From positions 2,093,001-2,157,000 of the forward strand of contig NZ_CP130044.1 of NCBI RefSeq assembly GCF_030505395.1: a stretch of 64,000 bases of DNA, given 5' to 3'. Numbering within the stretch: position 1 is the stretch's first letter; the number at the start of each line of letters is the position of its first letter. The DNA comes from Asticcacaulis sp. ZE23SCel15. Lineage in GTDB: Bacteria > Pseudomonadota > Alphaproteobacteria > Caulobacterales > Caulobacteraceae. Below the pieces are notes generated by a model. That model had not been told where the DNA came from. It saw only the letters and a program-made list of their open reading frames with translations, and ran no database searches. Position numbers and translations under genes: made by a program. This document shows positions 8,038 through 55,027 of this stretch, in pieces.

Positions 8038-9300
8038 ATGCTCACGTCACCAGTAAACCACTCTGCGTCAGATACATCCGCGCGCACATCACCTGCGCTT
8101 AAGCCTGCAGATATGTCGATCTTACCGGCGGCGTTTCGCAAAAGTCTGAAAATTCTCAATAAAAACTGGCGCAAAGGCCGGCTGGATATTATCTTTCCGA
8201 ATGGTGGCGTCTGGTCGCTTACGGGGGTAGAAGAGGGGCCTTCGGCACAGTTGCAGGTAAAGAATACCCGCTTTATCCGCCGGGTGATGGCGTCGGGCGA
8301 TATCGGCTTTTGCGACGGATACCGCGAAGGCGAATGGGATACACCTGATCTGGCGGCTCTGTTGACCGTGCTGAGCCACAACCTTGATAAGCTTAAGATA
8401 CTGCTGGTCGGCAATCCGCTGGTGCGGGCGTTCAACAATATCGTCCACGCCTTCAATAAAAACACCAAAGAGGGTTCCAAACGCAATATTTTCGCCCACT
8501 ATGATCTCGGCAATGATTTTTATGGTCAGTGGCTTGACCCCAGCATGACCTATTCGTCGGCCCTGTTTGGTACCGAAACCGATCTGGAAAGCGCGCAGAC
8601 GGCCAAATATGCAGCCCTTGCCAAACTGGTTGATCTCAAACCCGGCCAGCACGTGCTCGAAATCGGCTGCGGGTGGGGCGGATTTGCTCAGTACGCCGCC
8701 CAAACCATCGGGGCCAAGGTCACCTGCCTGACCATATCCCCGGCTCAGGCCGATTATGCGACGGCGCGCATGAAACGGCACGGGCTCGATAATCTTGTGG
8801 ATATCCGTCTGATGGATTACCGCGATGTCGAGGGCGAATTTGACGCCATTGTCTCCATTGAGATGTTCGAGGCGGTCGGCGAAGCCTATTGGGATGCCTA
8901 TTTCGATCAGGTCAAAGCGCGGCTTAAACCCGGCGGTAAGGCGGGCCTTCAGATCATCACCATCCGCGATGACCTGTTTGATGAATACCGTCAGCGTTCG
9001 GATTTTATTCAAAAATATATCTTCCCCGGCGGCATGTTGCCAAGCCTTGCAAAGCTTAAAGACCAGGCGGCGCGCGTGGGTCTGTCACCGCTTAAAACCT
9101 ATGGGTTTGCGCTCGATTACGCCCACACACTGAAACTGTGGGCGCAGCGGTTTGAGGCGGCGTGGAAGGCGGGCCGCATCAGCGGTTTTGACGGGCCTTT
9201 CCGTAAGCAGTGGCTGTTTTATCTGGCCTATTGCGAAGCCGGTTTCCGCACCGGCCGCACCGATGTCATCCACTTCGGACTGCAACGCCCCAGAGTCTAA
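8038..9300 (+). CDS. cfa: Cyclopropane-fatty-acyl-phospholipid synthase family methyltransferase
   Basis: The 420-residue protein carries the S-adenosylmethionine motif VLEIGCGWGGFAQYAA (about residues 206-221), the family segment FAHYDLGNDFYGQWLDPSMT (about 152-171) and the C-terminal RQSDFIQKYIFPGGMLPS region. Enzymes of this family add a methylene or methyl group from SAM to double bonds in phospholipid acyl chains at the inner membrane. In the sigma/ChrR context it may be a methylase in a furan-fatty-acid route rather than a true cyclopropane synthase, and the sequence alone does not separate the two. A GAGGAAGG ribosome-binding site precedes the ATG. It probably ends the operon started at the TGATCC promoter. 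Confidence 0.88.
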   Translation: MLTSPVNHSASDTSARTSPALKPADMSILPAAFRKSLKILNKNWRKGRLDIIFPNGGVWSLTGVEEGPSAQLQVKNTRFIRRVMASGDIGFCDGYREGEWDTPDLAALLTVLSHNLDKLKILLVGNPLVRAFNNIVHAFNKNTKEGSKRNIFAHYDLGNDFYGQWLDPSMTYSSALFGTETDLESAQTAKYAALAKLVDLKPGQHVLEIGCGWGGFAQYAAQTIGAKVTCLTISPAQADYATARMKRHGLDNLVDIRLMDYRDVEGEFDAIVSIEMFEAVGEAYWDAYFDQVKARLKPGGKAGLQIITIRDDLFDEYRQRSDFIQKYIFPGGMLPSLAKLKDQAARVGLSPLKTYGFALDYAHTLKLWAQRFEAAWKAGRISGFDGPFRKQWLFYLAYCEAGFRTGRTDVIHFGLQRPRV

Positions 9301-54277: not shown

Positions 54278-55027
54278 TCAGCGAAAATGATCCTTGCGGG
54301 CGCGAAGGTCGCCAAAGCGATTGGCCTGTGCGTCAAAATCCGGCTCCATGAGCGGAAATTTCAGGAACGGATTGGCGCGGATTTCGTCCCTAAGGCGCGA
54401 GGGTACGGTGGGCAAGCCCTAAGTCCTGAGCGTGCGCAAATGTTGAGCGTGAACTATCAGATCGTCATGAATATCAACACTTTCCGCAAACCGTAGGTTA
54501 TCCAGCGCATATTCATGGGCGCTGTAGATCAGGGTGTCTGCGGGCAGGGTCATCAGGCGTGTCAGGCTCATCCACATGTCGGTGGGCGTGCCTTCTCGCA
54601 GCCGCCCGCAGCCCAGCACAAACAGGCAGTCACCGACAAAGGCGACTTTGAGATCGCGGTTTATATAGCCAATCTGTCCGGCGGTATGGCCGCGCAGATC
54701 CATAATCTCAAAGCGCGTTTCCCCTAGGACAACCTCATCGCCGGGATGTAGGACCTGATCCAGCGGGGCGTTGCGGGTCACTTCCTGCGGCCCGAAAATC
54801 TCGCAGCCAAAACGGTCTTTCAGCGCCTGATTGCCGTTCGTGTGATCGGGGTGCCAGTGGGTGTTGAAGATGTAGTCAAGCCGTCCCCAGCCCAAACCAG
54901 AGATGGCGCTCGCAATCACGTCCGCGTCGGGGGTGTCGATGGTGGCAACCTGTCCCGTCGCCTGATCGCGGACTAAAAAGGCGTAATTGTCCTGAAGACA
55001 GGGGAAGACGCGGATATCGAGAGCCAT
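54278..55027 (-). pseudogene. gloB: Glyoxalase II (hydroxyacylglutathione hydrolase) interrupted by an in-frame amber codon
   Basis: The first 202 codons encode a metallo-beta-lactamase fold with the metal motif THWHPDH (residues 57-63), RGHTAGQIGY and VGDCLFVLGCGRL. A TAG then stops the frame at 54419-54421. The same frame continues directly with GLPTVPSRLRDEIRANPFLK and, at its end, RKDHFR to a TGA at 54278. That tail is the normal glyoxalase II C-terminal, glutathione-binding domain. One C-to-T change (CAG to TAG) explains it. Full length would be 249 residues, the usual size. The truncated protein would keep the metal site but lose most glutathione contacts. Glyoxalase II hydrolyses lactoylglutathione to lactate. 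It is divergent from a methyltransferase gene. Confidence 0.88.

What the first reader, a model, noticed from the sequence alone, without database searches (positions are those of the whole stretch)
54278..55027. In-frame amber codon before an intact C-terminal domain of glyoxalase II
The reading frame stays open on both sides of TAG at 54419-54421. The 46 codons after it keep the family's TVPSRL...NPFLK and terminal RKDHF motifs, so the mutation looks recent. It could be a true nonsense mutation, a readthrough or suppression site, or a sequencing error. If real, methylglyoxal clearance through lactoylglutathione would depend on another copy.
Basis: seen in the sequence. Interest (0 to 1): 0.75.

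Follow-up and report, generated by a model that had tools for sequence, protein, structure and literature searches.

The report
False stop codon from nanopore miscall
The stop codon that seems to cut a methylglyoxal-detoxifying enzyme short in this lake bacterium is most likely a sequencing error caused by a methylated DNA site, so the gene is probably normal.

Summary
In detail: gloB (54278-55027, minus strand) reads 202 codons, TAG at 54419-54421, then 46 intact codons holding the HAGH_C domain. The TAG is most likely not in the cell. The genome has the exact length (3,774,217 bp) of Asticcacaulis sp. ZE23SCel15, a Flye assembly of native R10.4.1 nanopore reads "without any further correction". 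The TAG falls on the outer base of a CcrM methylation site: the closest relative for this gene has GACTC (GANTC), the window GACTT. This genome loses GANTC sites this way en masse: of 289 sites shared by two relatives, 49 read AANTC or GANTT here, against 7 of 253 and 2 of 256 in the relatives. These changes ignore selection: 32 of 44 coding ones alter the protein, against 13% of other private transitions here (first sample) and 0 of 9 in A. endophyticus. An unbiased scan ranks GANTC first of 11,819 contexts. Of 24 other Asticcacaulis genomes, none has a stop in the domain; 23 have one open frame and one (G022) a frameshift. Verdict: methylation-linked basecalling error, about 0.92; a real recent nonsense mutation is the main rival. 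Not a biological novelty, but a warning about this reference genome.

The parts
54278..55027 (-). gloB, hydroxyacylglutathione hydrolase (glyoxalase II), whole frame with the in-frame TAG
   Evidence: TIGR03413 234.9 bits when read through
54422..55027 (-). 202 codons before the TAG: metallo-beta-lactamase domain with the THWHPDH metal motif
   Evidence: Pfam PF00753 71.3 bits, TIGR03413 199.7 bits; motif read, its name recalled
54419..54421 (-). TAG codon 203; G004 and G013 have CAG here
54421..54425 (-). GACTT, where G004 (UBA2476) has GACTC, a GANTC (CcrM) site; the differing base is 54421
54281..54418 (-). 46 codons after the TAG: end of the HAGH_C domain, conserved
   Evidence: Pfam PF16123 28.8 bits

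Best explanation
The TAG is a methylation-induced nanopore basecalling error. CcrM methylates the adenine of GANTC. With the basecalling model used, the base next to the methyl-adenine was ambiguous in native reads (G or A on one strand, hence C or T on the other), and at a fraction of sites the uncorrected consensus took the wrong base. In gloB the wrong base turns a glutamine codon into TAG. The cell would then make an ordinary 249-residue glyoxalase II. Shown: the excess of such changes, its motif, its blindness to protein effect, a ccrM gene, the published sequencing method. Inferred: that this particular base is one of the errors, and the signal-level cause.
For: Genome length equals that of ZE23SCel15, an uncorrected R10.4.1 Flye assembly. 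GANTC sites shared by two relatives and read AANTC/GANTT in the third genome: 49 of 289 here, 7 of 253 in G002, 2 of 256 in G013; upstream 200 kb not used to form the idea: 28 of 157, 5 of 134, 2 of 137. Coding effect of these private changes: 32 of 44 replacement here, 0 of 9 in G002 (not counted); other private transitions here 564 of 4242 replacement or stop (Fisher p 2e-13). Blind hits would give 72% replacement, 23% synonymous, 5% stop. GANTC G>A ranks first of 11,819 contexts. Nine gapped control motifs and GATC show no comparable asymmetry. CcrM ORF, PDB 6PBD E 6e-189. Known error type beside methylated bases, motif RA/TY, and GANTC named for agrobacterial nanopore assemblies.
Against: No reads were seen. 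At this codon only G004 has the GANTC; G013 has GGCTC, so the ancestral site rests on one relative. None of the 51 tabulated private GANTC changes is a stop, where up to about 2 were expected. Indels and broken genes show no clear excess in this genome. Broader G>A contexts are also mildly raised here (p about 1e-8), unexplained. One other Asticcacaulis genome (G022) has a frameshifted gloB, so loss of gloB in the genus cannot be ruled out.
Confidence: 0.92

Rival explanations
1. A real, recent nonsense mutation in this isolate: glyoxalase II is cut at residue 202, loses most of HAGH_C, and lactoylglutathione hydrolysis falls to the YcbL-like enzyme or stays low.
For: The TAG is in the file; a single transition suffices; a YcbL-like glyoxalase II is encoded; G022 shows that a gloB frame can be broken in another deposited genome of the genus.
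Against: The base lies on a GANTC outer position, where most private changes in this genome look like errors; the tail is constrained; no other of 24 genus genomes has a stop here.
Confidence: 0.06
2. The GANTC changes are real: a recent methylation-directed mutation process in this strain, of which the gloB stop is one outcome.
For: The same counts as for the best explanation would be seen if the mutations were too young to be filtered by selection.
Against: It needs a process not known to me, while the sequencing method used has a published error of this form.
Confidence: 0.015
3. The TAG is real and read through or suppressed, so that full-length enzyme is made.
For: The tail is conserved and in frame.
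Against: Of 45 tRNA matches 44 were called by ARAGORN and none has anticodon CTA; the last is a 5' half. The list is incomplete: it holds no tRNA-Ile(GAT) or tRNA-Ala(TGC). No relative has a stop here, so no conserved recoding signal.
Confidence: 0.005

Closest known systems
Methylation-induced nanopore basecalling errors (Lohde et al. 2024, PMC11610573; mSystems 2025, PMC12710330; passages seen of both)
   Same: A/G and T/C confusion beside methylated bases, minimal motif RA/TY; GANTC named as an error motif in agrobacterial assemblies
   Different: Here inferred from comparison with relatives, without reads; shown for one Asticcacaulis assembly with a false stop as a consequence
Glyoxalase II GloB (TIGR03413; PDB 1XM8, 1QH3)
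   Same: Whole frame scores 234.9 bits against a cut-off of 200.8 when read through; 1XM8 E 6e-51
   Different: As filed, the frame stops at residue 202 and scores 199.7, just under the cut-off
YcbL-type glyoxalase II (PDB 2XF4)
   Same: A 231-aa paralogue elsewhere in this genome matches it at E 5e-69; it lacks a HAGH_C match in the own genome scan
   Different: gloB of the finding is not of this type; its cut frame only resembles it in lacking the C-terminal domain. The function of YcbL is recalled

Membership tests
methylation-induced nanopore error | errors concentrate at a methylation motif | tested here: met
   49 of 289 shared GANTC sites changed here, 7 of 253 and 2 of 256 in relatives; top of 11,819 contexts
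methylation-induced nanopore error | purine-purine or pyrimidine-pyrimidine confusion next to the methylated base (RA/TY) | tested here: met
   G>A before A and C>T after T are the changes in excess; definition from passages
methylation-induced nanopore error | changes blind to protein effect | tested here: met
   32 of 44 coding changes replace a residue; 72% expected if blind
methylation-induced nanopore error | matching methyltransferase in the genome | tested here: met
   RAMA domain hit and 373-aa CcrM ORF in L170, PDB 6PBD E 6e-189
methylation-induced nanopore error | native nanopore reads without short-read correction | tested here: met
   PMC10586169, whole text; link to this genome by identical length
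methylation-induced nanopore error | mixed, strand-biased base calls at the position | not testable with these tools
   reads SRR25177533 not held
glyoxalase II GloB | TIGR03413 above its cut-off | tested here: inconclusive
   199.7 as filed, 234.9 read through, cut-off 200.8
glyoxalase II GloB | metallo-beta-lactamase domain with THxHxDH metal motif | tested here: met
   PF00753 71.3 bits; THWHPDH in the translation
glyoxalase II GloB | C-terminal HAGH_C domain in the product | tested here: inconclusive
   encoded in frame but after the TAG
glyoxalase II GloB | hydrolysis of S-lactoylglutathione | not testable with these tools
   needs an enzyme assay

The most novel reading that the evidence does not exclude
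The CcrM-site changes are real: this strain has recently undergone unselected transitions confined to GANTC outer bases (methylation-directed mutagenesis), hundreds across the genome by extrapolation, and the gloB stop is one of them.
Probability: 0.015. Interest if true: 0.8.

Novelty: not a real feature. Interest (0 to 1): 0.18.

Why it matters
It probably removes a false pseudogene and shows that a published complete genome carries systematic errors at CcrM sites: in the 264-kb sample 35 of 209 GANTC sites shared by two relatives are changed at an outer base, where 6 of 183 and 2 of 188 would be background. Extrapolated, 15 to 22 false stop codons could exist genome-wide, a rough figure that the stretches sampled did not bear out beyond gloB. 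Counting outer-base transitions at a methylation motif against relatives, with their codon effects, is a way to flag such assemblies without reads. Similar 'recent pseudogenes' in nanopore-only alphaproteobacterial genomes should be checked for GANTC context.

Tried and rejected
Suppressor tRNA: none with anticodon CTA among 44 called tRNAs; the list is incomplete. Second GloB: none found; only a YcbL-like paralogue. Shared truncation: no relative has a stop at this place. In one search, 12 of the 29 whole-genome loci L004-L032 were read on the wrong strand and their rows are meaningless; re-read those 12. Together, 28 of 29 have one frame through the position and L017 (G022) has a frameshift near residue 185, with the tail in another frame. 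The 37 loci L033-L069 all read past the position (L055 holds three ambiguous residues). Seven relatives that bear no locus from the genus (and the rest of the 61) were not read codon by codon. The DNA alignment misplaces G002 and G009 for the same strand reason; only its window, G004 and G013 rows were used. General assembly decay: no clear excess here. Broken ORFs: G002 tested in this genome 10 of 209, G013 in this genome 17 of 195, this genome in G002 13 of 193 and in G013 20 of 187, G002 in G013 20 of 209, G013 in G002 18 of 199; many are alternative-start artefacts. Private 1-2 base indels were 47 here, 154 and 202 in the relatives, by looser rules for the relatives. One search returned nothing (BLAST options) and was redone. 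The downstream 160 kb was poorly collinear (75 kb aligned to G002, 17 kb to G013) and adds little; in the second upstream 200 kb only 86 kb aligned to G013. In one search two G002 pieces overlapped; one search repeats the count without the overlap, with the same result (35 of 209). Paper searches; the only paper listed for ZE23SCel15 is its announcement. No paper was read.

Full report
Observation. On the minus strand, 55027 to 54278 holds one frame: ATG, 202 codons, TAG at 54421-54419, 46 codons, TGA. The product is glyoxalase II: TIGR03413 199.7 bits before the stop, HAGH_C 28.8 bits after it, 234.9 bits on TIGR03413 when read through. The tail is constrained: 12 synonymous against 2 replacement codon differences from UBA2476, 10 against 3 from G013, in 46 codons. 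All 61 genomes searched, this one included, have a match to the part before the stop. In 25 Asticcacaulis genomes HAGH_C is found 25 times and contains a stop only here. Of the 24 others, 23 have it in the same open frame as the rest of gloB; in G022 it lies in another frame, a frameshift near residue 185. In 37 of 37 loci from named genomes the frame runs past this position.

Which genome. The contig is 3,774,217 bases long, the exact length of Asticcacaulis sp. ZE23SCel15 (CP130044) from Lake Zurich. Its announcement (PMC10586169, whole text read) reports native barcoded R10.4.1 reads, guppy 6.4.6 super-accurate model, Flye assembly 'Without any further correction', 34x. The nearest genomes it names, UBA2476 and A. 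endophyticus, are G004 and G002 here: the contig lengths 238,866 and 1,883,974 agree.

The site. UBA2476 reads GGACTCAGG around codon 203, the window GGACTTAGG, G013 GGGCTCAGG. The differing base is the last base of GACTC, an instance of GANTC, the CcrM target. A CcrM is encoded (373-aa ORF in L170, PDB 6PBD at E 6e-189).

The pattern. It was first seen in the window and then tested on fresh stretches. Taking GANTC sites shared by two of the genomes, I counted how many read AANTC or GANTT in the third (this genome, G002, G013). Upstream 200 kb, not used to form the idea: 28 of 157 here, 5 of 134 for G002, 2 of 137 for G013; window: 7 of 52, 1 of 49, 0 of 51. A further 200 kb: 12 of 65, 1 of 57, 0 of 55. 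Downstream 160 kb, little of it collinear: 2 of 15, 0 of 13, 0 of 13. Sum: 49 of 289, 7 of 253, 2 of 256. In pairwise counts with G013, G002 and G009, 111 of 782 GANTC sites are lost this way towards this genome, 22 of 637 the other way, 39 of 1212 among the relatives. Nine gapped control motifs and GATC show no comparable asymmetry; the largest are GTNAC, 0.057 against 0.042, and GATC, 0.081 against 0.070. A scan of 11,819 substitution contexts puts G>A in GANTC first (41 private changes here, 11 in G002, 6 in G013, p 1.6e-12). Broader G>A contexts follow at about 1e-8, a mild general excess in this genome that I did not explain.

Error, not evolution. Real differences between species are filtered by selection; errors are not. 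Of private GANTC-outer changes in coding sequence, 23 of 33 (window plus 200 kb), 7 of 9 and 2 of 2 replace an amino acid, 32 of 44 in all; 7 more are non-coding. Other private transitions here are 564 replacement or stop against 3678 synonymous in the first sample (Fisher p 2e-13). In G002, 0 of 8 and 0 of 1 coding GANTC-outer changes are replacements (not counted). If outer bases were hit blindly, 72% replacement, 23% synonymous and 5% stop would be expected. The observed split is that of blind errors. From that 5%, about 1 to 1.5 false stops are expected in 264 kb; gloB would be one. It is outside the tabulated sites because of the relatives compared only UBA2476 keeps GANTC there, and none of the 51 tabulated changes is a stop where up to about 2 were expected, a mild mismatch.

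Known error type. Lohde et al. 2024 (PMC11610573, passages) report A/G and T/C ambiguity beside methylation sites, minimal motif RA/TY, which GA and TC of GANTC fit. A 2025 mSystems paper (PMC12710330, passages) names GANTC among error motifs of nanopore assemblies of agrobacteria; a BMC Genomics paper (PMC12392509, passages) links two potential errors to GANTC in Brucella.

If the TAG were real. The cut enzyme would lack most of HAGH_C, which by recalled knowledge of human glyoxalase II carries glutathione-binding residues; the structure alignments stop short of that end. The genome has a glyoxalase I match (111.9 bits, under the 120-bit cut-off, which only 1 of 25 genus genomes passes), gshA and gshB, and a YcbL-like glyoxalase II (2XF4, E 5e-69), but no second GloB equivalog was found. 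No amber suppressor tRNA was found in an incomplete tRNA list.

Verdict. Methylation-induced basecalling error 0.92; real nonsense mutation 0.06; directed mutagenesis at CcrM sites 0.015; readthrough of a real TAG 0.005. The reads decide.

Noticed in passing
window 23289, 41181, 62513 (Asp to Asn); 71, 38797, 58522 (synonymous); 10218 (non-coding); 8685 (synonymous): Eight further private GANTC-outer transitions in the window, suspected miscalls; at 8685 A. machinosus shares the base, so that one may be real.
   Followed up: partly
L128 (G000:C1:3578547-3578618): A 34-bit tRNA match that ARAGORN does not call: only the 5' half looks like a tRNA (CTT anticodon region), perhaps an integration scar of a mobile element.
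   Followed up: no
L017 (G022:C1, around 1055597): gloB of another Asticcacaulis genome has a frameshift near residue 185, with the intact tail in another frame.
   Followed up: no
G004:C18:47652-48398 (L173): UBA2476 carries a second, 37%-identical gloB-like frame with a strong HAGH_C (101.2 bits) and no glyoxalase I match; it is an 87% complete metagenome bin, so contamination or a gap is possible.
   Followed up: no
G000:C1 near 1953750, 1958546, 2075256 (L137, L143): Single-base insertions against both G002 and G013 where ORF matches split between frames: possible indel errors, no excess shown.
   Followed up: partly
PMC10586169: The announcement gives G+C as 56.81% in its abstract and 56.18% in its text.
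   Followed up: no
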